Source: Nitrospirota bacterium (GTDB lineage: Bacteria > Nitrospirota > Nitrospiria > Nitrospirales > Nitrospiraceae). Taken from it: DNA of 64,000 nucleotides. Shown in pieces: positions 51,223 through 64,000 of this stretch (positions are counted from its first letter, which is position 1; each line of letters begins with the position of its first letter). The notes under the pieces are model-generated. The model was given only the letters and a program-made list of their open reading frames with translations. It ran no database searches and was not told the DNA's origin. Made by a program: the position numbers and the translations under genes. Location of the stretch: NCBI GenBank assembly GCA_004296885.1, contig SCVN01000007.1:62001-126000 (forward strand). Direction: 5' to 3'.

Positions 51223-53025
51223 TCACTTTCGCTGGATGAGCTTGACCGGCGGCTGGGCGGACAGGGCGGGCGGGATAATGAGCTGGGGCACCTGCTCGGT
51301 GTTGTACGTGCGGCGCGCAATCCGCTGGACCTGCGGCTTGAGATAATCGAAGAGCTCCTGGACATCGATCGTCCCGTCGCCGTTGGCGTCGGCCTCCCCG
51401 CCCATCCCTTGCAGCGCATAATAGGTGAAGAGTCCGTGGCCCGTTTCCTGATCGGCCAGACTCAGATTACTGCCCGATGTGGCGGCCAGGACCACCGCCT
51501 TGGAGCTGCTGGCCATGCCTTCGACCGTCAAGACCATCGGTTTCGCCCCCTTGGCAAGCACGGAACGTCCTCCGGCCCCCGAGAAACAGGAATCGAGCAT
51601 CACCACAATGTTTTTGGTCGGGAGTTTTTCCAGCGTCTGATAGAGCCGCTTGAGCGGATAGCCGGTCTGTTCGATAAAGGCCGGGTCCCCGTCATAGGGC
51701 ACAAGGTAGGCCTCTCCCGTGTCGGCCTTCGGGGCGCCGTGCCCCGAGAAATAGACGAACAGACTGGAGTTCGCGTCCACATTGTTCTTGAGCCAGGCTT
51801 CGAAGTACTTCTCCAGATCCGATTTGGTGGCCTGCTCGTTCAGACGCAGGATCACATTTTCTTCCCGATAGCCCCCTTGGCTGGTCAAGAACTGCGCCAT
51901 AGCTTTGGCGTCTTGGACGGCGAATTCGGCCCTGGGAATGCGTTCCCGATACTGCTCGATGCCGACCAGGATCGCGTACCGGTTGGCCTGCGGCGCAATC
52001 GGTTGGCCGGCCTTGCCGACGGCCTTCTCCAGCTTCTGTTTCTCCTCCTCAATCCGCTTCTTCTTCTCTTCGATCTGCTGTTGCACCGACGCCAGCTTCT
52101 GCTGTTCCTTCTTCTGTTCCTCAACCTGGCGCTCCTGCTCTTCGAGCGCCTTCAATTCCTTCTCCGCCTGGCTGAGCGAGACACTGCCCCCCACCCGGTT
52201 CTTTTTCTCCTCCTCGATCCGCTTCTTCTTCTCTTCGATCTGCTGCTGAATCGCGGCCAGTTTCTGCTGCTCCCGTTTCTGCTCCTCCTTCTGCTCCGCA
52301 ATCTGCCGCTCCTGCTCTTCGAGCGCCTTGAGGTCCTTCTCCACCTGTCTGAGCGCGGCGTTGCCCCCCGGCTTCGCCGCCAGCTTGGGGATGGCGCCTG
52401 GCTGGTAGGCCGCCAATTCCTGCTTGACGGTCTCAAAGACCTTGACCACCGCATTGTACAAACCCCGCTGCGCAAGCTCGGCCATCTTCTCCTCCGGCCC
52501 GATCGGGCTGAAGTGGTCGGTGGCCTTGGTCGGTTCGGTCTTGGCCCACAAAAGACGGCCGGTCCGCGCATCCCGCAGGTTGGCCTCCACCGTCACGGTG
52601 ATTTCATAGCTCATGATCGGAGCCAACGGCTCGCCGAAGGTCAGCGGAATGGCCGCGATAAAAATCGCGTTCATGTCGCCGCTGCTCTTCGTGTCGATCA
52701 ACTGGAGCTGGAGAATCAGATCCACGCCGAACTGGTCGAGGATGTCCTGGGGGGCAATGTAGCGGGTTTCGGGAGGCAGGAGGATCACGTCGGTGAAGTA
52801 TTGGCCTGGCGCCAAGCCCAACCTGCGCCGGTCCGGATCGGCGAAGGCTTTTTTGAGCGCCTCCCCCGTCACGTGGACGCCCAACCGGGCCGGAATCGGT
52901 TTCGACGGGAGCGCCGGTTTCGCCACTTCGGTAACGGCGAGCGTCCCGCAGGCGGTCAGCAGCAGCAACGGAGCCGCGAGCAGTCCCCACCAGTGCCCGA
53001 GTCGCGTCCCTTTGCGATGGCGCAT
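51223..53025 (-). CDS. Caspase-like lipoprotein with duplicated coiled coil and EF-hand loop
   Basis: A 600-residue protein. ATG 53025 follows GGGAGGTACGT; the leader LLAAPLLLLTACG is a lipobox. Residues 40-215 form a lipoprotein-like domain (DLILQLQLIDTKSSGDMNAI; YEITVTVEANLRDARTGRLLW). Residues 227-332 are a coiled coil made of two near-copies of KALEEQERQ..EQKK and QQIEEKKKRIEEEKK. The C14 peptidase spans 345-600: YAILVGIEQYRE, His in LFVYFSGHGAPK near 430, Cys in IVVMLDSCFSGAGGRS near 478, and a canonical EF-hand DANGDGTIDVQE near 548. It resembles bacterial orthocaspases. A coiled coil between a lipid anchor and a Ca-linked peptidase suggests an envelope-attached sensor protease; that is inference. 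Confidence 0.88.
   Translation of the reverse strand: MRHRKGTRLGHWWGLLAAPLLLLTACGTLAVTEVAKPALPSKPIPARLGVHVTGEALKKAFADPDRRRLGLAPGQYFTDVILLPPETRYIAPQDILDQFGVDLILQLQLIDTKSSGDMNAIFIAAIPLTFGEPLAPIMSYEITVTVEANLRDARTGRLLWAKTEPTKATDHFSPIGPEEKMAELAQRGLYNAVVKVFETVKQELAAYQPGAIPKLAAKPGGNAALRQVEKDLKALEEQERQIAEQKEEQKREQQKLAAIQQQIEEKKKRIEEEKKNRVGGSVSLSQAEKELKALEEQERQVEEQKKEQQKLASVQQQIEEKKKRIEEEKQKLEKAVGKAGQPIAPQANRYAILVGIEQYRERIPRAEFAVQDAKAMAQFLTSQGGYREENVILRLNEQATKSDLEKYFEAWLKNNVDANSSLFVYFSGHGAPKADTGEAYLVPYDGDPAFIEQTGYPLKRLYQTLEKLPTKNIVVMLDSCFSGAGGRSVLAKGAKPMVLTVEGMASSSKAVVLAATSGSNLSLADQETGHGLFTYYALQGMGGEADANGDGTIDVQELFDYLKPQVQRIARRTYNTEQVPQLIIPPALSAQPPVKLIQRK
52031..52342. repeat. Internal duplication encoding the coiled coil of the caspase-like lipoprotein
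   Basis: Two related segments (about 52031-52168 and 52198-52342) encode the same series: KALEEQERQ, an EQKKE/EQKREQ linker, QQQIEEKKKRIEEEK. Near-identical DNA such as CGCTTCTTCTTCTCTTCGAT occurs in both. It is an in-gene tandem duplication with a 10-residue length difference. Confidence 0.85.
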
Positions 53026-53110
53026 ACGTACCTCCCGTTTGTCCTTGCCGATGCAGGGACAGATGTATCCCAATTCACAAAAGGATTGCAAGAACGCGAG
53101 TCGAGGGAGG

Positions 53111-54610
53111 CTACCCGCCGAAGGGCAGGGCGGACGGAGGCCCCGCAGCCGCGGCGGGGGCCGCGAACTGGGAGAACATCATGCTGGCGGAGACCACCCA
53201 GTCGATAAACGGCTGGGGGTAGATGCCCAGAATCACAGTACCGGCCAGGCACACGTAGATCACCGCCTGCATAGGCGCGGAGACGGTCAGCGGCGAGGGA
53301 TCGGTCGGCTCGTTGATGTACATTTTCTTGACCACGATCAAATAGTAGTACATCGAGATCACGATGTTGATGAGCCCGACAAGGATCAAGGTGTAGAGCC
53401 CTTCGTTCATCGCCGCCACGAAGATGTAGAGCTTGCCCAGAAACCCGGCCAGCGGGGGCACGCCGGCCAGCGAGAGCAGGAACATGATCATGGCGAACGC
53501 CAGAAAGGGCGACCGCCGGTTCAACCCGCTGTAATCTTCGATCTCATCGCTGTGAATCTGGTTGCTGACCGCGATCACCACGGCAAAAGCCCCGAGGTTG
53601 GCGAACAAGTACGTCAGGAGGTAGTACAGGATCGCGTCGCTGCCCATCTTGGTGCCGGCCGCGAGCCCGATCAGCAGGTTGCCGATCTGGGCGATGCCCG
53701 AATAGGCCAGCAGCCGTTTGATGTTCTTCTGCGCGATGGCCACGATGTTGCCGTAGGTCATCGAGAGGATCGAGGCCCCCACCAGCAGCAGGACCCAGGC
53801 CGGCTTGAACGTGGCCAGCGAGACGAAGAACATCCGCAGCAGGATCGCGAAGGCGGCCCCCTTGGGCGCAATCGAGAGGAACGCCGTCACCGGCGTGGGC
53901 GCGCCATGGTAGGTGTCCGGAATCCACGAATGGAACGGCACCGCCCCGATCTTGAACCCCAGCGCGGCGAAGATCAGCAGAAAGCCGATGATGAGGCCGG
54001 GCGTGGGCTTGGCCGACGCAATGTCCGAGAAGACCAGCTTGCCCGTCTCTCCGAAGACCAGGCTGATGCCGTAGGCCAGGAGCCCCGCGACGAAGACGCC
54101 CAGGATGAAGAATTTGAGCCCGGCTTCGTTGGACGACACCTCATCCCGCAGGTAGGCCACCAGGACGTAAAACCCGAACGTCGAGAACTCCAGCGTGATG
54201 AACATCGACAGGAGATCGTTGGCCGAGGCCATGAACATCATGCCCAGGGCGGACATCAGGACGAGAAAGTAATATTCGCCCTTGAAGAACCGGAAGCGCC
54301 GGACATAGTCGATCGAGATCAGGACGACCAGGGCGGTGGCGCCCACGATGAAGATCTTGAAAAAGATCGCCAGCCGGTCCACCACGAACATGTTGTTGAA
54401 GAGGACGCCGGTCACGCCGGCACGGTCGAACCAGGCCAGGTTCAGCAGCACCGCCGCCAGCCCGCCCACGCTCAGGTAAGCCAGCCGGTCCTTGGGGAGC
54501 CGCGGCATCGCGAAGTCCACGATCAGGACCACGCAGAGCCAGACGGTCAGCAGGATCTCCGGCAACATGAGGAGGAGATCGGACCCGGACATGGAGAAGT
54601 TAAAAATCAT
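53111..54610 (-). CDS. nuoN: NADH-quinone oxidoreductase subunit N
   Basis: Antiporter-like membrane subunit of complex I. The 499-residue product begins at ATG 54610 (IFNFSMSGSDLLLMLPEILL) and has about fourteen helices. The Lys of TM7 is kept in FKIGAVPFHSWIPDTYHGAP, the TM8 Lys in LSIAPKGAAFAILLR, and the Glu in VLITLEFSTFGFYVLVAYL-type region (ITLEFSTFGF). Late Pro/Gly-rich block SLAGVPPLAGFLGKLYIF is typical. The C-terminal Ala/Pro-rich tail FAAPAAAAGPPSALPFGG is odd. It is the last gene of the nuo cluster; its start lies 4 bp after the nuoM stop. Confidence 0.95.
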   Translation of the reverse strand: MIFNFSMSGSDLLLMLPEILLTVWLCVVLIVDFAMPRLPKDRLAYLSVGGLAAVLLNLAWFDRAGVTGVLFNNMFVVDRLAIFFKIFIVGATALVVLISIDYVRRFRFFKGEYYFLVLMSALGMMFMASANDLLSMFITLEFSTFGFYVLVAYLRDEVSSNEAGLKFFILGVFVAGLLAYGISLVFGETGKLVFSDIASAKPTPGLIIGFLLIFAALGFKIGAVPFHSWIPDTYHGAPTPVTAFLSIAPKGAAFAILLRMFFVSLATFKPAWVLLLVGASILSMTYGNIVAIAQKNIKRLLAYSGIAQIGNLLIGLAAGTKMGSDAILYYLLTYLFANLGAFAVVIAVSNQIHSDEIEDYSGLNRRSPFLAFAMIMFLLSLAGVPPLAGFLGKLYIFVAAMNEGLYTLILVGLINIVISMYYYLIVVKKMYINEPTDPSPLTVSAPMQAVIYVCLAGTVILGIYPQPFIDWVVSASMMFSQFAAPAAAAGPPSALPFGG

Positions 54611-54614
54611 TGGA

Positions 54615-56291
54615 TTACCGCTTTTCCATTTCGGATTGGCCGACCCCACTCGACGCGGCGACGCGGCGAGCGGGCGACACGGCGATCTCCGCGTCCCCGT
54701 GTCCCCGCGTCCCATGCTCTCGAGTGGTCAGCGGCGTCACCTGGGTGATCCGGGACACCAGGGGATCCGTGCCGGCCCGGATGACCTTGTAAAAATGTCC
54801 GGGGAAAATGCCGAACGTGATGCTGCAGGCAATCATCAACAGCAGCGGCATCCGGTCCACCATCGTCACCGCGTCGTGGGCATGGCTATAGTGGGCGTCC
54901 ATCGGGCCATAGAAGACCCCGCGCATCATCCGGAACAGATAGGCCATGGTCAGCACGATGCCCACCACCGCGACGAATACCTGAAAGGGGTACTTGTTCC
55001 AGCTCCCGACGAGGATCATGACCTCGGCGATGAAGTTCACGGTCCCGGGCATCCCGATCGAGGCCATGCAGGCGATCAGGAAACAGCCGGCCACGAAGGG
55101 CATGCGGTTGACCAGCCCGCCGAGCGAGGGGATGTCCCGCGTATGGGTCTGGTCGTACACCCATCCGGCCATGGCGAAGAGCATGCCCGTGGCCATCGCG
55201 TGGGCGAACATGTACAGGACCGCCCCGCTCAAACTGATGTAATCCAGCGCGGCCATGCCCAGGAAGACATACCCCATGTGGCTGGAGCTGGAATAGCCGA
55301 TCACGTACTTCGTATCCTTGGCATAGAAGGCCACGAACCCGCCGTAGAGCATGCTGAACACGCAGAGCACCGCCGCGATGGGCATCAACTCGCGGGTAGT
55401 CTCCGGAAGAATCTCGAAAGCCACGCGGATGATCGAGAAGTGCCCGAGCTTCATCAACACGCCCGCATGCAGCATGCTGGTGGCGGCCGGGGCGGCCGCG
55501 TGCCCGACCGGCGACCAGGAGTGCAGCGGCCACAGCGGCGCGATCGAGGCGAAGCCGAAGAAGATCAGCAGCCAAATAAGATCCGCCAGCGGCCCGGAGA
55601 AATGCGCCTTCTCGCGCAGGGCCAGAATATCGAACGTGTGCAAGCCGGAGAATTTGTAGATCAGCAGGATGCCCAGAAGCGAGAGGATGGCGCCGGCCGA
55701 CAGGAACAGCGTCAGCTTCATCGCCGCATATTCCTTGCTGTTGGAGCCGAAATTGAACAGGAACGCCACCGAGTCCCGTTTTTTCAACCCCTCCGGATCG
55801 GTCATGGCGAGATAGCCCTTGGTGTGACTACCCCACATGCCCAGCAGCAGGTACATCGGCAGCACCGACATCTCGTAAAAGAAATAGAGGAAGAACAAGT
55901 CCAGCGACATGAACACGCCGATGGTCGCGGCGGCCAGGACCAGGAGCACGATGTAGAATTCCTTGGTCCGGTCCTTGATGTGCCAGGAGACGAAGATGCC
56001 CGCAAACAGCAGAATGGACGAAGCCAGGACCAGCGGGGTTCCAATGCCGTCCACCCCCAGGTAGAAAGCGATGCCCAGTTCCTTCGACCATTCGAAGCGC
56101 TGGATGAACTGGTACCCGCCCTTATCTGCATCGAAGGCGAAGAAGAGGTAGAAGGAGGCGAGCAATGAGACGCCGGCCGAGGCGGCGGCGATCAGGCGGA
56201 CCGCCATCGCCTTGCGGTTCGACACGAACAGCAAGGCGATGGCTCCGACGAACGGCGCAAACAGAATATAGAGCAGTGCGTACTGGCCCAT
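54615..56291 (-). CDS. nuoM: NADH-quinone oxidoreductase subunit M, divergent second copy
   Basis: A 558-residue antiporter-like subunit M. It has the Mrp-type core: LPMYLLLGMWG with Glu before it in FYEMSVLPMY, the TM8 Lys in LHAGVLMKLGHFS, GYSSSSHMGYVFLG, and SIGMPGTVNFIAEVMILVGS with the TM12-region Glu. The TM7 segment is unusual: FGFASIAPLWPLHSWSPVGHAAAP has Ile where other M/L/N subunits have the proton-path Lys, and LPDA is replaced by SPVG. A complete, conventional nuoM lies directly upstream, so this complex I has two M subunits. The C-terminal about 35 residues are encoded by degenerate 8-bp repeats and are probably a recent extension. Confidence 0.93.
   Translation of the reverse strand: MGQYALLYILFAPFVGAIALLFVSNRKAMAVRLIAAASAGVSLLASFYLFFAFDADKGGYQFIQRFEWSKELGIAFYLGVDGIGTPLVLASSILLFAGIFVSWHIKDRTKEFYIVLLVLAAATIGVFMSLDLFFLYFFYEMSVLPMYLLLGMWGSHTKGYLAMTDPEGLKKRDSVAFLFNFGSNSKEYAAMKLTLFLSAGAILSLLGILLIYKFSGLHTFDILALREKAHFSGPLADLIWLLIFFGFASIAPLWPLHSWSPVGHAAAPAATSMLHAGVLMKLGHFSIIRVAFEILPETTRELMPIAAVLCVFSMLYGGFVAFYAKDTKYVIGYSSSSHMGYVFLGMAALDYISLSGAVLYMFAHAMATGMLFAMAGWVYDQTHTRDIPSLGGLVNRMPFVAGCFLIACMASIGMPGTVNFIAEVMILVGSWNKYPFQVFVAVVGIVLTMAYLFRMMRGVFYGPMDAHYSHAHDAVTMVDRMPLLLMIACSITFGIFPGHFYKVIRAGTDPLVSRITQVTPLTTREHGTRGHGDAEIAVSPARRVAASSGVGQSEMEKR
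54651..54714. repeat. Octanucleotide tandem array inside the nuoM 3' end
   Basis: GACGCGGC-like units (CGACGCGG, CGACGCGG, CGAGCGGG, CGACACGG) at 54651-54686, then GCGTCCCC, GTGTCCCC, GCGTCCC at 54691-54714. They encode the hydrophilic tail of the divergent NuoM, which is not part of the normal fold. Confidence 0.75.
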
Positions 56292-56344
56292 GAGCGTCTT
56301 TTTTTACTTCCTTTTCACTCCGAAAGTGACGGGCGGACAAGCCC

Positions 56345-57943
56345 CTACTGCGCGCGTCCGCCGAGCATATTCTGATGTGCGCGGCGCGCGAGCACGGGGG
56401 GCTGGCCGCCCGGCGCTTCCGCCACCGCACCCTTGTCCAACCGCTCGACCAGTGCCTGCACCGAACCGTTCATCATCCTGAGGAACGGCGAAGGATACAG
56501 CCCGATCCAGAAGATCATCACCGACAAGGATACGGCGATGACCAACTCGCGCGCATTGAGATCCGTAATGGCCTGCCCCGCCGCCTGCGCCAACGGCCCC
56601 AGCATTGCCCGTTCGTAGTACCAGAGGAAATACGCCGCCCCGAAGACCACCCCGGTCACCGCGACTGCGCCGTACAGCCAGTGCGCCTGGAAGGCGCCCA
56701 ACAGGATCAGAAATTCGCCGACGAACCCGTTCGTCCCAGGCAGGCCGATCGAGGCCAGTCCGACGATCAGCAGATAGGTCGCGAGCAGCGGCACCTTCTT
56801 GGCCAGCCCGCCGAACGCCGCCAATTGCGTGCTGTGCCGCCGCTGGTAGAGAAAGCCGGCCAGGAAGAACAATCCGGCCGTGCTGAAGCCGAGGTTGATC
56901 ATCGTCAGCAGGCTGCCTTGCAAGCCCTGAAAGTTCAGCGCAAACAAGCCGGCCACCACGAAGCCCAGGTGGCTGATGCTGCTGAAGGCCAACAGCCGGC
57001 GGAAGTCCGGCTGGACCAGCGCCACGATCGCTCCGTAAATGATGGCCAGCAGCGCCAGCGTCATCATCGTGCTCGCCACCCCGGGGCTCTTCGAGGCATC
57101 CGGCAGGAGCGGGAGGCTGAAACGGATGAACCCGTACGTGCCCAGCTTGATCCCGGCCAAAAAGACCGCCATCCCGATCGGCCCTTCCAGCAACGCGTCC
57201 GGCAACCAGGTGTGGAAGGGGAACATCGGTGCCTTGAACGCCAGGCCCATGAAGATCAGCCAGAAGATCAGCACCTGTTTTTCGGCGGGAATCGGAATCG
57301 TCAGCAATTGCAAAAAGTCGAAGGAATAGGCCGGCTCGATGTGATGGACCACGGCCCAGTCATGGTAGTTGAGATCCAGCAACACGATCCCCACCAACAT
57401 GAACACGCTGCCCAGCAACGTGTAGAGCACATACTTGAGCGCCGCATACTGCCGCTCCGCCCCGCCGCCCCAGAGCTTGATCAGGAAGTAACTCGGGATC
57501 AGCATCAATTCCCAGAAGACGAAAAACAGGATCAGGTCCAGCGCCGCGAAGATGCCCATCATCGTCGTCTCGAGCGCCAGCAAGGCCACGAAATAGAGCT
57601 TGATCTGATGCCGGACCGTGTCCCAGGAGTAGAGCACCACCAGCACGGTCAAGAAAGCCGTGAGCCCGATGAACAACACGCTGATCCCGTCCAGCCCCAA
57701 GTGGTAACTGATACCCAGCGGCGGAATCCAGGCCAGGCGCTCCGAGAATTGCATCGCCGCGGACTCGGGCACGAAGCGCAGCAAGACGATGACGGTGAGC
57801 ACCAGCTCCAGGAGCGAGATCCCCAGCGCCGCATTCTTGATCAGGTCCTCTTCCTCGAGCAGCGCGAGCAGGATCGCGCCCAGGAGGGGCAAAAACAGGA
57901 TCAACGAGAGGATCGGAAATCCGAATGTGAGTTCCTGCAGCAT
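56345..57943 (-). CDS. nuoM: NADH-quinone oxidoreductase subunit M, conventional copy
   Basis: A 532-residue complex I subunit M with about fourteen helices. Hallmarks: Glu in VFWELMLIPSYFLIKLWGG, TM7 Lys in GLAFKAPMFPFHTWLPDALLEGP, TM8 Lys in LAGIKLGTYGFIRF, FSSISHLGFVVAGLFALN, and SIGLPGTNGFVGEFLILLGA. These match E. coli NuoM closely. It lies 22 bp after nuoL and 53 bp before the second, divergent nuoM. Presence of two M genes in one cluster points to the '2M' form of complex I described in Nitrospira and some other bacteria. The C-terminal tail GGQPPVLARRAHQNMLGGRA is unconserved. Confidence 0.95.
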   Translation of the reverse strand: MLQELTFGFPILSLILFLPLLGAILLALLEEEDLIKNAALGISLLELVLTVIVLLRFVPESAAMQFSERLAWIPPLGISYHLGLDGISVLFIGLTAFLTVLVVLYSWDTVRHQIKLYFVALLALETTMMGIFAALDLILFFVFWELMLIPSYFLIKLWGGGAERQYAALKYVLYTLLGSVFMLVGIVLLDLNYHDWAVVHHIEPAYSFDFLQLLTIPIPAEKQVLIFWLIFMGLAFKAPMFPFHTWLPDALLEGPIGMAVFLAGIKLGTYGFIRFSLPLLPDASKSPGVASTMMTLALLAIIYGAIVALVQPDFRRLLAFSSISHLGFVVAGLFALNFQGLQGSLLTMINLGFSTAGLFFLAGFLYQRRHSTQLAAFGGLAKKVPLLATYLLIVGLASIGLPGTNGFVGEFLILLGAFQAHWLYGAVAVTGVVFGAAYFLWYYERAMLGPLAQAAGQAITDLNARELVIAVSLSVMIFWIGLYPSPFLRMMNGSVQALVERLDKGAVAEAPGGQPPVLARRAHQNMLGGRAQ

Positions 57944-57965
57944 GAACCGTTCCGTCTCCCGCCTT

Positions 57966-59960
57966 CTATTTCAACATCCCGCCTGATCCGGTCCACCAAG
58001 CCAGGACGAGATGGACCAGGATGAACAAGCCGGCCACGATAATCGCGGCGTAGTGATGCACCTGCCCGCTTTGAATCTTCCGCCAGGAGCGCGCCAGGAG
58101 GTGGTTGGCATAGCCGATCGCGTTGAGCCCTCCGTAGATCACGTACTTCTCCAGCCAGGTGCTGCCCGCCGCACTCGACTGGGTCAGCTCCCCGACCCCG
58201 ACGACGAGCCGGTCAATGACGTGGCGGTCGAACCAATCCCAGACCAACCCCAGCTTCTTGGTCGGTTCCACGAACAGGGCATCATAGAGTTCGTCCACGT
58301 AGTACTTGTTCAGCAGCGTCCGATAGACGCCCGGAGACCGTTCCGCCCAGGCCGCCGCAGTCTCGGTGCGCAGGCTGTAGAGATAGTGGGCCAGCCCCCA
58401 GCCGGCCAAGGCGATGGCCGTGGCCGCCAGCATCAGCGTCACGACCAATCCGGACCCCGCGTCATGCCCCGAGACCTCCCCCCCGACTTGCGCCGTTACC
58501 TTGTGCAGGAAGTGGTGGAACCACCCGTCTTCCGGCGGTACCCCGGGAAATCCGCCGAGCACCGACAGGGTCGCCAGCACGACCAGCGGCCCGAGCATGA
58601 TCGGGGGCGATTCGTGGATATGTTCGGCTGTGTGATGGTCCACGCGGGAGCGGCCGTAAAAGGTCAGGTACGTCAACCGGAACATGTAAAAGGCGGTCAG
58701 AAACGCCCCGATCGCGGCCATCCCATATAAAACATAATGGCCGTGCACGAAGGCGTGGGCCATGATCTCGTCCTTGCTCCAGAACCCGGCTAACGGGAAA
58801 ATGCCGGCGATCGCCAAGGTCCCGACCAGGAACAGTCCGTGCGTCCAGGGGATTTTCGACTTCAGCCCGCCCATCTTCATGATGTCCTGTTCGCCGTGCA
58901 GGGCATGGATCACCGAGCCGGCCGACAGGAACAGGAGGGCTTTGAAGAAGGCGTGGGTCATCAGGTGAAAGACCGCCGCCGTGTAGGCCCCGATCCCGCA
59001 AGCCAGGAACATGTAGCCCAACTGGCTGACCGTGGAATAGGCCAGGACCCGCTTGATATCCGTTTGCACGAGGCCGATCGTGGCCGCGAAGAGCGCCGTC
59101 GTCCCGCCGACAATGGCCACCGTCGTCATGGCCACCGGCGCCATGTCGTAGATGACGTGGTTTCGCACGATCATGTAGACGCCGGCCGTCACCATGGTGG
59201 CCGCATGGATGAGGGCGCTGACCGGGGTGGGGCCTTCCATCGCATCCGGGAGCCACGTGTACAGGGGCAACTGGGCCGACTTGCCCACGGCCCCGATCAA
59301 CAAACACAGGGCGATCGCCGTCGCCATTTCGGTGGATAGCTGGCCAGCCTGGGCGAACACCTGCTGGTAATCCAGCGTCTTGAAGTTCTGGAACACCAGA
59401 AAGATGGCGAGCAGGAACCCCGCGTCCCCGATCCGATTGACCACGAAGGCCTTGGAGGCCGCCTTGGCCGCGGACACCTTGTCGTAGTAGTAGCCGATCA
59501 ACAGGTACGAACAGAGGCCCACGCCTTCCCAGCCGATGAAGAGGACGAGGTAGTTGTTCCCCATCACCAGCAGGAGCATGGAGACCATGAAGAGGTTCAT
59601 GTACGTGAAGAAGCGGGTAAAGCCCTCCTCGCCGTGCATGTACCCGACCGAATAGAGGTGGATGAGGAACCCGACGCCGGTCACCACCAGCAGCATGATG
59701 CATGTAAGGGGATCGATCAGGAAGGCCAGGTTGACCGTGAGGTCGCCGCCGAAGATCCATTTATAGGCGACGACTTCCCTCGCGGTGCCGGAGCCCAGCG
59801 TCTCCGCGAAGACCCCGATCGCGCAGAGGAACGAGAGGCCCACCGAGCCCCAGGCCAGCCGGTGCGCCATCTCGTGGGAATAGCGGCTGCCCAGCAGACC
59901 GTTCAGGAGCACGGCCACCAGCGGAAAAACCGGGATGAGAATGACGATCAGATCGGACAC
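57966..59960 (-). CDS. nuoL: NADH-quinone oxidoreductase subunit L
   Basis: The 664-residue distal antiporter-like subunit of complex I, slightly longer than E. coli NuoL (613). It carries Glu in LFIGWEGVGLCSYLLIG, TM7 Lys in LIGAVGKSAQLPLYTWLPDA, TM8 in LIHAATMVTAGVYMI, the Lys/His block AVFHLMTHAFFKALLFLSAG and SVIHALHGEQDIMKMGGL. The C-terminal region from about 500 onward holds the long lateral helix and a last membrane helix (AAIIVAGLFILVHLVLAWW). The gene lies 97 bp from the nuoK stop, the gap being almost wholly a palindromic repeat element. Confidence 0.96.
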   Translation of the reverse strand: MSDLIVILIPVFPLVAVLLNGLLGSRYSHEMAHRLAWGSVGLSFLCAIGVFAETLGSGTAREVVAYKWIFGGDLTVNLAFLIDPLTCIMLLVVTGVGFLIHLYSVGYMHGEEGFTRFFTYMNLFMVSMLLLVMGNNYLVLFIGWEGVGLCSYLLIGYYYDKVSAAKAASKAFVVNRIGDAGFLLAIFLVFQNFKTLDYQQVFAQAGQLSTEMATAIALCLLIGAVGKSAQLPLYTWLPDAMEGPTPVSALIHAATMVTAGVYMIVRNHVIYDMAPVAMTTVAIVGGTTALFAATIGLVQTDIKRVLAYSTVSQLGYMFLACGIGAYTAAVFHLMTHAFFKALLFLSAGSVIHALHGEQDIMKMGGLKSKIPWTHGLFLVGTLAIAGIFPLAGFWSKDEIMAHAFVHGHYVLYGMAAIGAFLTAFYMFRLTYLTFYGRSRVDHHTAEHIHESPPIMLGPLVVLATLSVLGGFPGVPPEDGWFHHFLHKVTAQVGGEVSGHDAGSGLVVTLMLAATAIALAGWGLAHYLYSLRTETAAAWAERSPGVYRTLLNKYYVDELYDALFVEPTKKLGLVWDWFDRHVIDRLVVGVGELTQSSAAGSTWLEKYVIYGGLNAIGYANHLLARSWRKIQSGQVHHYAAIIVAGLFILVHLVLAWWTGSGGMLK

Positions 59961-59977
59961 GTTACTCCGCCAGATTC

Positions 59978-60062
59978 AGGATGCTCAAAACGGCCAACCA
60001 ACGCGGCCGCAGGGGCTGAGCGACCGAGAACAAAGTTGGGGACCATTTTCAGCATCCTGCTA
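59978..60062. repeat. Palindromic intergenic element, copy 2 (between nuoK and nuoL)
   Basis: An 85-bp element with arms CAGGATGCTCAAAACGG (59978-59994) and, reverse complemented, CAGGATGCTGAAAATGG (60059-60043). The interior contains GAGCGACCGAGAACAAAG (60018-60035) and TTGGGGAC as in copy 1 at 8997-9098. Its right end CTA (60060-60062) is the TAG stop codon of nuoK. It interrupts an otherwise compact nuo cluster. Confidence 0.88.
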
Positions 60063-60362
60063 CCACTTCAAGAGATTCATTTCGTCCACGTTTGTGGACA
60101 GCTTTCCGCGGAAGACTACGATGATGATCGCCAGCCCCACGGCTGCCTCCCCGGCGGCGATCGCAATCACGAACAGGGCGACAATCTGTCCGGCCATGGA
60201 CTCCAGGTAATGGGAGAAGGCGACCAGATTGATGTTCGCCGCGTTGAGCATGATCTCGACCGACATCAACACGATGATGAAATTGCGACGGACCAACACT
60301 CCGATCAGGCCGGTGGCGAACAGGATCGCGCTGACGGCCACATAGGCGCTCAACGGGATCAT
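60060..60362 (-). CDS. nuoK: NADH-quinone oxidoreductase subunit K
   Basis: A 100-residue, three-helix complex I subunit of standard length. The start overlaps nuoJ by 4 bp (ATGA). Hallmarks: TM1 SAYVAVSAILFATGLIGVLV, TM2 with the conserved Glu in IIVLMSVEIMLNAANINLVA near residue 36, and TM3 with Glu in VIAIAAGEAAVGLAIIIVVF near 72. These two Glu residues take part in proton transfer. The stop codon TAG is the first three bases of the palindromic element. Confidence 0.97.
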   Translation of the reverse strand: MIPLSAYVAVSAILFATGLIGVLVRRNFIIVLMSVEIMLNAANINLVAFSHYLESMAGQIVALFVIAIAAGEAAVGLAIIIVVFRGKLSTNVDEMNLLKW

Positions 60363-60883
60363 GGTTCATGCTCCACATCGGCGACGGTTGGCGTTTTCGC
60401 CAGCACGATCGCCCCGATGATGGCCCCCAAGAGGAACACTCCGACGATTTCGAACGGGAGCAAATAATCGCTGAACATCTTGATGCCGACCGCGTAACTA
60501 TCTCCGTCTTTCAGCACGGCTTCGGCCGGCGCATCGCCCTTCGCCCCTGCATAGGGGGATCGGAGCAGCAGGATCAGCAGTTCCCCGCAGACCGCCGCCG
60601 CCGCGAACAGGATCACCGCATAGCGGGAGTGGAGATAGCGTTCGTCGGTCTTGAGGTTCAGCAGCATCAACACGAACAGATAGAGGACCAGAATCGCGCC
60701 CGCATAGACGATGACCTGCACGGCGAACAGAAATTCGGCATTCAGCAGGACGAACAGCCCCGCTACGTGCAACAGCAGGGTCAGCAGCGCCAGGCCGCAA
60801 TGGACCGGGTTGCGCAACGCCACGGTGAACACTCCCGCGGCAATACTCACGAGCGCGAAGTAGACGAAAAAGAACAGCGTCAT
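60359..60883 (-). CDS. nuoJ: NADH-quinone oxidoreductase subunit J
   Basis: A 174-residue, five-helix complex I membrane subunit. It shows the family region NPVHCGLALLTLLLHVAGLF, LNAEFLFAVQVIVYAGAILV (with the pi-bulge helix TM3) and LYLFVLMLLNLK. The C-terminal helix IVGVFLLGAIIGAIVLAK is also typical. It lies 13 bp after nuoI and overlaps nuoK by 4 bp, as in the usual nuoIJK order. Confidence 0.96.
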   Translation of the reverse strand: MTLFFFVYFALVSIAAGVFTVALRNPVHCGLALLTLLLHVAGLFVLLNAEFLFAVQVIVYAGAILVLYLFVLMLLNLKTDERYLHSRYAVILFAAAAVCGELLILLLRSPYAGAKGDAPAEAVLKDGDSYAVGIKMFSDYLLPFEIVGVFLLGAIIGAIVLAKTPTVADVEHEP

Positions 60884-60896
60884 GAGCCTATTGGGT

Positions 60897-61484
60897 TTAT
60901 GTCAAATGCTTCGGCGGCGGCTGTGTCGCCTTCAGCACCGACTGGGGGAAAAAGTACCGGTACTCCCGGCTTGACTGGTCGTCCTTCTCCTGATGATGGG
61001 CGACCAAATATTTTTTTGCGTCGTCGATATATCGTTCACCGATCTGATACAGCCGCGGCTTGTCGAACAGGAGGGTCCGCTTGTCGTGGGTGGAATACTC
61101 GTACATCTTGGTCATGGCCAGCGCGTTGACCGGGCAGGCCTCCACGCAGTAGCCGCAAAACACGCACTTCGTGATGTCGATGTAGAACTCGCTCGCATAC
61201 CGCTGGAGCGGGCGGTCCCGATCCTCGGTGCTGATGACTTTGATGCAATGGGACGGGCAGGCGGCTTCGCAGAGGTCACAGCCCACGCACCGTTCGCGCC
61301 CGTCGTCGTACCGCAGCAGGCCCAGCGCTCCGCGATGGGTGTCGGGAATGGTCCGCTGCTCCCGCGGGTACTGGAAAGTGATCGGCTTATAGAACATGTG
61401 CTTGAACGTGACCTTCATTGCGTCCCAGATTTCATAGAACAGGGCCGCCTCAAGAAGCTTCTTGGTCAATACTCCGACGCGCAT
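60897..61484 (-). CDS. nuoI: NADH-quinone oxidoreductase subunit I
   Basis: A 195-residue peripheral-arm subunit that carries clusters N6a and N6b. Two ferredoxin motifs are intact: ERCVGCDLCEAACPSHC (about residues 65-80) and KCVFCGYCVEACPVNALA (about 115-132). The N-terminal amphipathic part FKHMFYKPITFQYPREQRTI anchors it to the membrane arm; QYP..Q is a family motif. The C-terminus is charged. nuoG ends 77 bp upstream, with a heptad array between; the nuoH usually found there is absent. Confidence 0.96.
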   Translation of the reverse strand: MRVGVLTKKLLEAALFYEIWDAMKVTFKHMFYKPITFQYPREQRTIPDTHRGALGLLRYDDGRERCVGCDLCEAACPSHCIKVISTEDRDRPLQRYASEFYIDITKCVFCGYCVEACPVNALAMTKMYEYSTHDKRTLLFDKPRLYQIGERYIDDAKKYLVAHHQEKDDQSSREYRYFFPQSVLKATQPPPKHLT

Positions 61485-61504
61485 CTCTTTTAGCTCCAGA
61501 GCTG

Positions 61505-61561
61505 CAGCTCTCAGCTTTCAGCCCAAACGGCTAGCTGAAGGCTGACTGCCGATGGCTCGTT
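61505..61561. repeat. Inverted heptanucleotide arrays between nuoG and nuoI
   Basis: Left array CAGCTCT, CAGCTTT, CAGCCCA (61505-61525); right array GCTGAAG, GCTGACT, GCCGATG, GCTCGTT (from 61534), the inverse of the same GCTGA motif. They fill the nuoG-nuoI gap and could fold into a hairpin. Confidence 0.78.
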
Positions 61562-64000
61562 TCACACCTTCTCGATGGCCACCGCCGTCAGCTTGAACGA
61601 GGGCACGCCCGTCACCGGGTCCATCTCGACGGCCATCAGATCCTTGACCGGCGGTTCGTTGAAATGTTCGGGGAAGAAGCAGGCCCCGGGTAACAATGCC
61701 TGGTCCGCTTGCACCCCCATCTCCAGCGACCCCCGCTCCGAACTCACGCGCACCCTTGCCCCGTCGCTTAGGCTCAAACGCTCCATGTCCTGCCCGTTCA
61801 TGCGGAGCTTGCCGGTATTCGGCGCAATCTTGATCAAGCCCGAGGCCTGGGTCGAAAGTTTGCCCGAGTGGTACAGGAGTTGTCCCATTACCAGCCCGAA
61901 GGGACGGCCCTTGTCCCGCGCGGCGGCCGACGCGCCCCCTCCGTACCGACCGGCCAGGTGCGACGCATAGCCGTTGGACAAGTAGCCCTCCGGCCTCGGC
62001 GCGATCTTTTTGGGTTGGCCCAGGTTGTAGTAGCCGGGCAACAGTTTCATGATTTCGTTCTGAATGTCCTGCGGGGATTCGTAGCTCAATTCATAGCCAA
62101 GTCCATTGGCCAGCGCGGTCATGATGTGCCAGTCCGGCAGGCTCTCTCCGATCGGGTCCATGGTCTGGCGGACACGCTGGACCTTGCCTTCCTGGTTCGT
62201 CACGGTCCCGTCCTTTTCGGCGAAGGTGCAGGCCGGCAGAACGAAGTGCGCCATCTGCGCCGTGTCGGTCAGGAACGGGTCCTGGACCACCAACAGGTCC
62301 AGTTTCGCCAGAGCGTCCTTGACGCCGGACGAAGCCGGCAGCGTCGCTAGCGGGTTTTCCCCGATGACGTACAGCGCCTTGATCTGACCATTGCGGCAGC
62401 GATTGAGAATCTCCGCCAAATGCACGCCCTTGCCAATCGGCGGCAGCATGACCGGCTTGTCCTTGCCCCAGGCCTTGGCGAACTTGGCTCTCGCCGCTTC
62501 ATCATCAAACCGGGCCTGACCGGGCAGGAACTCCGGCGCTGCGCCCAAGTCCATCGCACCCTGCTCGTTGGCCTCCTCGACCACCGTGTTGATGCCGCAA
62601 CCGGGCCGGCCCAGCTTGCCGGTGATCCAGGCCAGGTCGATCAGGGTCAGCACGTCGTGATACCCGCCGGAACGGCGGACGATCCCCTCACCACAGATGA
62701 TGACGGCGCGCGGCGCTTCGGCAAAGATCGCCGCCGCTTCGTGAATCTGCGCGACCGACACCCCGGTCTGCGCGGCAATGGCATCCAGCGACAAGCCGGC
62801 GGCCGCTTGCTTGAGCGCCGCAAAGGCCTCCGGGTGCTTCCCGACCGTCTCTTCATCCACCAGATCCTGTTCGAGCACGGACTTGACCAGCCCCTGCGCA
62901 AACAGGCCCTCCGTGCCGGGCTTGACCAGCGTCGGATGGGATGCGAGCTTGGCCATGTTGGTGTTGGCCGAGTTCACCACGATCACCTGAGCGTGATAGA
63001 CGCGGATCGCTTCCTTGATCCTGATACTCGCCACCGGGTTGGTTTCGGTGATGTTCGATCCGATCACAAGGATGGCCTTGGCCTTGGTGATGTCCTCGGA
63101 GTCGTTGGTCATCCGCCCGACGCCCAGAGCCTGCCGGACCGCGTGAACGAAGTTGGCATGGCCGTAGCGCGCGCTGCTGTCCAGTTGGTTGGTCCCGATC
63201 GCGGCGCGCATGAGCTTCTGGAACAGATAGAGTTCTTCGTTGGTGCAGCGTGCCGTGATGAGGCCGCCAATGGCGTTCGGCCCATGCTGCGCCTTGATCG
63301 CCGCGAGACGATCCACGACCTGATGCATGGTCTCCAGCCAGGGCGCTTCGGCCAGCTGTCCGTCCCGTCGCGCCAGCGGCTGGCGCAGCCGGGCCTGGCT
63401 GTCGATGAACTGGAACCCGAACCGTCCGCGGACGCAGATGCCGCCGTGCCCCTTGGCTGTCTCGGCCCGGTCTCCCCACTTGTTTTTCCAGGAGAGCGGA
63501 GCGGTCACGCGGACCACTTCGGTGTCCTTGGTCTCCACATACATCTGGCAACCGTCGCCGCAGTAATTGCAGGTGGTCGTCGTTTTCTTGAGCTGCCAGG
63601 GCTTGTAGAGATACTTGGAGTACTTGTTGGTGATCGCCCCCACCGGGCAGACCGCCAGGCAGTCACCGCAGAACTCGCAGGAGAGGGCCACGTCGCCCTT
63701 GGCCACCACCTGGGTGAACCCGCCTTTTTTGGTGAACTGCAGGGCGTCGATCATCAGCACGTCCTTGCAGATGTTGATGCACTCGCCGCAGGCGATGCAG
63801 CGGTTCATGTTGAAATCCAGCACGAGGCTGCGGGTGTCCTCCGGGATCAGCTTCTGTTTGGCATTGGCCAGGTTGGTCACCTGATGCTGGAAGGCCATGT
63901 CCTGCAGTTCGCAATGCCCGTCCGCGTCGCAGACCGGACAGTCCAGCGGGTGTACGGAGAGGTGCTTCTCCACCGCTTTTTTGCGGGCCAGGAAAAGATC
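61562..64000 (-). CDS. nuoG: NADH-quinone oxidoreductase subunit G (partial; 5' end outside window)
   Basis: The largest complex I peripheral subunit; reads off the right edge of the window and lacks its N-terminal ferredoxin part. From the edge: DLFLARKKAVEKHL, then the N5/His-type motif HPLDCPVCDADGHCELQDMA, cluster motifs NRCIACGECINICKDVLM and CEFCGDCLAVCPVGAITN, and the molybdopterin-like domain start TTCNYCGDGCQMYV (CxxCxxxC with a fourth Cys later, N7-type). The rest is a formate dehydrogenase-like fold without active molybdenum chemistry. At least 812 residues lie in the window. It is the first gene of the visible cluster; nuoE, F, A-D and H are not seen here. Confidence 0.95.
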   Translation of the reverse strand, partial: DLFLARKKAVEKHLSVHPLDCPVCDADGHCELQDMAFQHQVTNLANAKQKLIPEDTRSLVLDFNMNRCIACGECINICKDVLMIDALQFTKKGGFTQVVAKGDVALSCEFCGDCLAVCPVGAITNKYSKYLYKPWQLKKTTTTCNYCGDGCQMYVETKDTEVVRVTAPLSWKNKWGDRAETAKGHGGICVRGRFGFQFIDSQARLRQPLARRDGQLAEAPWLETMHQVVDRLAAIKAQHGPNAIGGLITARCTNEELYLFQKLMRAAIGTNQLDSSARYGHANFVHAVRQALGVGRMTNDSEDITKAKAILVIGSNITETNPVASIRIKEAIRVYHAQVIVVNSANTNMAKLASHPTLVKPGTEGLFAQGLVKSVLEQDLVDEETVGKHPEAFAALKQAAAGLSLDAIAAQTGVSVAQIHEAAAIFAEAPRAVIICGEGIVRRSGGYHDVLTLIDLAWITGKLGRPGCGINTVVEEANEQGAMDLGAAPEFLPGQARFDDEAARAKFAKAWGKDKPVMLPPIGKGVHLAEILNRCRNGQIKALYVIGENPLATLPASSGVKDALAKLDLLVVQDPFLTDTAQMAHFVLPACTFAEKDGTVTNQEGKVQRVRQTMDPIGESLPDWHIMTALANGLGYELSYESPQDIQNEIMKLLPGYYNLGQPKKIAPRPEGYLSNGYASHLAGRYGGGASAAARDKGRPFGLVMGQLLYHSGKLSTQASGLIKIAPNTGKLRMNGQDMERLSLSDGARVRVSSERGSLEMGVQADQALLPGACFFPEHFNEPPVKDLMAVEMDPVTGVPSFKLTAVAIEKV

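What the first reader, a model, noticed from the sequence alone, without database searches (positions are those of the whole stretch)
54615..56291. The second NuoM lacks the TM7 lysine of antiporter-like subunits
In the usual M, L and N subunits TM7 carries a Lys central to the proton path (here GLAFKAP in the first M, GAVGKSAQ in L, GFKIGAV in N). The downstream M has GFASIAPLW, so the Lys is an Ile, and the next motif LPDA is SPVG. Other charged residues (Glu in FYEMSVLP, Lys in VLMKLG, Glu in FIAEVM) remain. The extra subunit may therefore use a different proton path or mainly serve as a spacer or coupling element.
Basis: partly seen in the sequence, partly recalled or inferred. Interest (0 to 1): 0.66.

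Follow-up and report, generated by a model that had tools for sequence, protein, structure and literature searches.

The report
Extra complex I subunit lacking pump lysine
The extra proton-pump subunit in the unusual respiratory complex I of Nitrospira bacteria has replaced the lysine found in almost all its relatives with an isoleucine that never varies, so the assumption that this subunit pumps one more proton needs testing.

Summary
In the second NuoM (M2) of this Nitrospira-type "2M" complex I, Ile250 aligns without a gap with E. coli NuoM Lys234 (LysTM7), and SPVG replaces LPDA. All 119 distinct M2 proteins read, from class Nitrospiria and down to 56% identity, have Ile (codons ATC 95, ATT 23, ATA 1). 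All 123 NuoM proteins in the M1/canonical set have Lys. Of 44 M2 columns whose consensus is Ile, only this one is invariant. No Lys or Arg replaces it nearby. The other axis residues stay (Glu140, Lys281, His338, Glu423), and M2 gains His275, matching NuoL's TM8 His. M2 is more conserved than M1 in 73 of 78 loci, so a degenerate spacer is unlikely.

The signature HSWSPVG(H/Y)A occurs in 156 of 396 Nitrospirota genomes. It also marks M2 of five-pump Manganitrophaceae-type operons, where a second subunit (MrpD2-like) has Asn at the same site.

Best reading: M2 is an ancient NuoM paralogue without the TM5/TM7 ion-pair switch that still relays protons or charge. Whether it exports its own proton is open. 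The published "fifth proton" inference should not be assumed. Precedent: E. coli HycC has Leu208 there. The founding 2M paper (Chadwick 2018) could not be read.

The parts
54615..56291 (-). nuoM2, second NuoM of the 2M complex I, 558 aa
   Evidence: AlphaFold model mean pLDDT 89.6, best PDB match NuoM 8qby_M, TM-score 0.92
55542..55544 (-). Ile250 codon (ATC) at the LysTM7 position (E. coli NuoM K234)
55503..55514 (-). SPVG (residues 260-263) in place of LPDA; Val262 at E. coli D246
   Evidence: motif survey
55467..55469 (-). His275 in TM8, at the spacing of NuoL HisTM8 (E. coli NuoL H254), absent from the other NuoM read
55449..55451 (-). Lys281, central LysTM8 (E. coli NuoM K265), retained
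55872..55874 (-). Glu140, GluTM5 (E. coli NuoM E144), retained but without its Lys partner
55023..55025 (-). Glu423, GluTM12 (E. coli NuoM E407), retained
55737..55829 (-). M2-specific insertion in the TM5-TM6 loop (about residues 155-185), low model confidence
56345..57943 (-). nuoM1, keeps LysTM7; TM8 two residues shorter and TM11 His (H348) replaced by Leu
57966..59960 (-). nuoL, keeps LysTM7; about 26-residue insertion in the lateral amphipathic helix (near 58095-58175)
53111..54610 (-). nuoN, keeps LysTM7 (start ATG at 54610, 4 bases after nuoM2)
60060..64000 (-). nuoK, nuoJ, nuoI and nuoG of the same operon (nuoG runs out of the window; nuoD, C, B, A follow; no nuoE, F or H in the operon)

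Best explanation
M2 is an old, strongly constrained NuoM paralogue in which the TM5/TM7 Glu-Lys ion pair has been dismantled, while the rest of the proton-transfer axis is kept (shown from sequence). It sits in the membrane arm as a fourth antiporter-like subunit (inferred from the operon and the longer NuoL helix). Most likely it still carries protons or charge along the axis through Glu140, Lys281, His338 and Glu423, helped by the extra TM8 His275 (inferred). With no ion pair of its own, its proton-transfer barrier is not gated locally but set by its neighbours, so it works as a slaved relay that transmits coupling between the conventional subunits (inferred). Whether it also expels a proton of its own is undecided.
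For: Ile in 119/119 M2 against Lys in 123/123 M1/canonical NuoM. It is the only invariant Ile of 44 Ile columns. GluTM5 is invariant and LysTM8, HisTM11 and GluTM12 are retained. His275 is at the NuoL HisTM8 position in 117/117. M2 is more conserved than M1 in 73/78 loci, than L in 60/78 and than N in 55/78. The model keeps the NuoM fold and the broken TM7 (helix to 248, restart at 259), with Ile250 at the break, and superposes on NuoM structures at about 1.9 A. Published work puts the Glu-Lys pair as the modulator of the barrier, about 14 A off the main path in Nqo13, with opening of the pair (mimicked by E123Q) lowering the barrier (PMC11496545). In NuoN the equivalent K217A kept normal proton pumping in proteoliposomes with about half the NADH oxidase activity (PMC13073174).
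Against: In E. coli NuoM the K234 substitution is reported to abolish quinone reductase activity (Euro 2008, as cited in PMC5061711). In the 'domino' mechanism each subunit needs its TM7/TM5 site (PMC10212512). A subunit without the pair could leak or break the chain. No structure of a 2M complex was found, and the order of M1 and M2 in the arm is not known.
Confidence: 0.45

Rival explanations
1. M2 is a full proton pump with the positive charge moved from TM7 to TM8: His275 (NuoL-type) works beside Lys281, and Glu140 pairs with it or with a neighbouring subunit. The 2M complex then does move one more proton per cycle, as published.
For: The extra His275 is invariant and M2-specific within the NuoM set. 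H+K on TM8 is also found in HyfD and in the MrpD1-like subunits of the five-pump operons. M2-specific polar residues lie beside Glu140 (Tyr139, Ser142). Axis residues are kept.
Against: HyfD and the MrpD1-like subunits have H+K on TM8 and still keep LysTM7, so His275 is not obviously a replacement. Distances between His275 and Glu140 could not be measured.
Confidence: 0.25
2. M2 is a non-pumping spacer that lengthens the arm or holds NuoL's longer helix.
For: It lacks LysTM7 and the LPDA Asp, both kept by M1, L and N in the window. HycC, which lacks LysTM7, tolerated 18 single substitutions without effect on FHL (PMC5061711).
Against: M2 is the most conserved antiporter-like subunit in most loci, with Glu, Lys, His and Glu of the axis retained and the Ile itself fixed. 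A spacer should lose buried charges first.
Confidence: 0.15
3. HycC-like function: with LysTM7 gone, M2 serves as a cytoplasmic proton entry for the axis rather than a through-channel.
For: E. coli HycC has Leu208 at this position, keeps GluTM5 and has an N-side path to its TM12 Glu (PMC9474812). The Leu is reproduced here. M2 keeps the His at E. coli position 248 (Tyr in the five-pump type), which Nitrospirales M1 has lost.
Against: The residues of the HycC N-side path (E294, H291, C430, K433) were not tested in M2. M2 groups with NuoM, not with HycC.
Confidence: 0.1
4. Sequencing or alignment error, or a shifted lysine.
For: None found.
Against: 119 distinct proteins from many assemblies, synonymous codon variation, ungapped local alignment and no K/R nearby; motif survey 156 genomes with zero reversed-pattern control hits in the rows shown.
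Confidence: 0.01

Closest known systems
2M complex I, clade 3 (Chadwick et al. 2018; Nitrospira CI_1, PMC6606698)
   Same: Tandem nuoM genes, NuoL with about 26 extra residues in the lateral helix, operon without nuoE, nuoF and nuoH
   Different: Nothing differs in architecture; the missing LysTM7 of M2 is not mentioned in the passages of open papers read here, which assume an extra proton per cycle
Five-pump Complex_I_3 of Ca. Manganitrophaceae (PMC9040806)
   Same: Operons of this gene order (MrpD1, MrpD2, M1, M2, N) in the class carry M2 with the same Ile and SPVG signature
   Different: MrpD-type subunits replace NuoL; the MrpD2-like subunit has Asn at LysTM7, so two of five putative pumps lack the Lys
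HycC of E. coli formate hydrogenlyase (PMC5061711, PMC9474812)
   Same: Hydrophobic residue (Leu208) at LysTM7 with GluTM5 and LysTM8 retained; Asp of LPDA also replaced (Gln)
   Different: Single antiporter-like subunit in a hydrogenase; groups apart from NuoM in the tree
Canonical NuoM / ND4 / Nqo13
   Same: Fold, broken TM7 and TM12, GluTM5, LysTM8, HisTM11, GluTM12
   Different: LysTM7 and the LPDA Asp absent; extra TM8 His; TM5-TM6 loop insertion

Membership tests
NuoM family (TIGR01972 / PF00361) | Profile score above the curated cut-off and NuoM fold | tested here: met
   420 bits against cut-off 263.8; TM-score 0.92 to 8qby_M
NuoM family (TIGR01972 / PF00361) | LysTM7 in ion pair with GluTM5 (functional hallmark, not a criterion of the profile) | tested here: not met
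   Ile in 119/119 M2, Glu retained
NuoM family (TIGR01972 / PF00361) | LysTM8 and GluTM12 (NuoM-type axis) | tested here: met
   K265 and E407 columns invariant in M2 apart from truncated sequences
2M complex I, clade 3 | Second NuoM gene next to the first | tested here: met
   conserved in order L, M1, M2, N
2M complex I, clade 3 | Insertion in the NuoL lateral helix | tested here: met
   about 26 residues against the canonical NuoL of the same genome
2M complex I, clade 3 | No nuoE, nuoF or nuoH in the operon | tested here: met
   Matches for A, B, C, D, G, I-N only; nuoH and nuoF-type genes lie elsewhere
2M complex I, clade 3 | Extra proton translocated per reaction | not testable with these tools
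   needs a purified complex
HycC-type subunit | Groups with HycC in the antiporter-subunit tree | tested here: not met
   M2 groups with NuoM

The most novel reading that the evidence does not exclude
The fourth antiporter-like subunit of clade-3 2M complexes does not export a proton of its own, so these complexes are not five-proton machines, and the Manganitrophaceae five-subunit version is not a six-proton machine. The extra subunits change gating, reach or reversibility (for reverse electron flow to ferredoxin) instead of stoichiometry.
Probability: 0.35. Interest if true: 0.8.

Novelty: new variant of a known kind. Interest (0 to 1): 0.62.

Why it matters
Energy budgets proposed for nitrite and manganese oxidisers assume that the extra NuoM pumps, which would let the complex drive electrons uphill to ferredoxin for CO2 fixation. 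A fixed loss of LysTM7 in exactly that subunit puts the assumption in question. It is also a natural experiment on the central dispute about complex I: whether each subunit pumps through its own gate or all protons travel along the axis to NuoL. The local-gate and domino models make different predictions for a chain with one ion-pair-less link.

Tried and rejected
Shifted lysine: rejected, no K/R in the segment of any M2. Sequencing error: rejected. Degenerating duplicate: rejected, M2 is more conserved than M1. Recent duplication of M1: not supported, M2 branches outside E. coli NuoM plus M1, though on a long branch that may attract. Viral contigs gave no relative and plasmids only matches under 60% identity, the listed ones about 35%. 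Other 2M clades (e.g. Chloroflexota) could not be reached: the one genome-contig scan kept the best 80 loci, all with titles of Nitrospirota or its look-alikes, and the genome search accepts only centres with a genome handle. The Chadwick 2018 paper is not held, so I cannot say whether it noted the missing Lys. Coordinates of the AlphaFold model are not available, so residue distances were not measured.

Full report
What was checked. The ORF at 54615-56291 (-) is a NuoM, the second of two in tandem, between nuoM1 and nuoN. A phmmer alignment to Paracoccus NuoM and multiple alignments with E. coli NuoM place it on K234 without a gap, with equal spacing to the following Trp, TM8 Lys and Arg. SPVGH replaces LPDAH. 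M1, L and N of the same operon keep the Lys.

How general it is. Relatives were fetched from genome contigs (80 loci), from 175 genomes of the family (169 with a match) and from 296 genomes of the phylum (110 with a match, all in the same class). Among 119 distinct M2 proteins read, Ile is present in 119, with codons ATC 95, ATT 23 and ATA 1; one further relative (L109) lacked the motif region in its open frame. The M2 of other families of the class, at 56-72% identity, all have Ile. A DNA pattern for HSWSPVG(H/Y)A hits 156 of 396 phylum genomes; all hits in the table lie in the class, and the reversed control pattern gave none in the rows shown. In the M1/canonical NuoM set, 123 of 123 have Lys. 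In this genome the nine other antiporter-like proteins that could be aligned all have Lys at this column, including a DabB-like and two hydrogenase-type ones; an eleventh, weak family member was not aligned.

Why it is not decay. Of 530 M2 columns, 140 are invariant; of 44 columns whose consensus is Ile, only Ile250 is invariant. M2 is more similar to the window's copy than M1 is in 73 of 78 loci. These counts come from related species, so they are not independent events; the tree puts the change on the M2 stem, most simply as one event.

What is kept and gained. Kept: Glu140 (E144), Lys281 (K265), His338 (H322), His364 (H348; Asp in the five-pump type) and Glu423 (E407). Gained and M2-specific: His275 at the NuoL HisTM8 spacing, His284, Tyr139 and Ser142 beside Glu140, and a TM5-TM6 loop insertion. 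M1 of Nitrospirales changed elsewhere: TM8 is two residues shorter, and H348 and H248 are Leu. The AlphaFold model (mean pLDDT 89.6) keeps the broken TM7, with Ile250 at the break, and matches NuoM structures.

Operon and system. Genes A, B, C, D, G, I, J, K, L, M1, M2, N are present; E, F and H are absent from the operon, and the genome's only nuoH-type genes lie in the canonical operon and in a hydrogenase-like cluster. NuoL has about 26 extra residues in the lateral helix. This is a clade-3 2M complex as described for N. moscoviensis (PMC6606698).

Second case. In the five-pump operons (order MrpD1, MrpD2, M1, M2, N), as published for Ca. [quoted passage not shown] Two of five putative pumps thus lack LysTM7.

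Mechanism. In current models LysTM7 pairs with GluTM5 and this pair sets the proton-transfer barrier (PMC11496545) or holds a proton in the domino scheme (PMC10212512). NuoM K234 substitution in E. coli is reported as inactivating (cited in PMC5061711), but NuoN K217A kept pumping in liposomes (PMC13073174), and HycC naturally has Leu208 (PMC5061711, PMC9474812; reproduced). I therefore favour a slaved relay, with a relocated-charge pump as the main rival and a spacer less likely. All statements about function are inference.

Limits. The founding 2M paper was not available. No 2M structure turned up in the PDB sequence search (best match a Paracoccus NuoM). The position of M2 relative to M1 in the arm is unknown.

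Noticed in passing
56345-57943 (-), nuoM1: M1 of Nitrospirales 2M complexes is itself unusual: TM8 is two residues shorter before the central Lys, and the TM11 His (H348) and the His of LPDAH are Leu, while the five-pump type M1 keeps the canonical residues.
   Followed up: partly
L125-L130 and L140, MrpD2-like genes: The MrpD2-like subunit of five-pump operons and of rhizobial green complex I has Asn at the LysTM7 column and Arg at E. coli K173.
   Followed up: partly
2M operon, 53111-64000 and onwards: No nuoH in the operon although NuoH forms the quinone entry and part of the E-channel; the only canonical nuoH of the genome is in the other complex I operon, so the 2M complex may share it.
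   Followed up: partly
54652-54713: The 3' end of nuoM2 holds tandem 8-base units (CCCCGTGT/CCCCGCGT) facing an inverted copy; it encodes the variable C-terminal tail of M2 and was found nowhere else in the window (0.26 matches expected by chance).
   Followed up: partly
51223-53091 (-): Gene downstream of nuoN encodes a protein with glutamine/glutamate-rich coiled-coil repeats and a caspase-like motif (VVMLDSCFSGAGGRS with an upstream HG).
   Followed up: no
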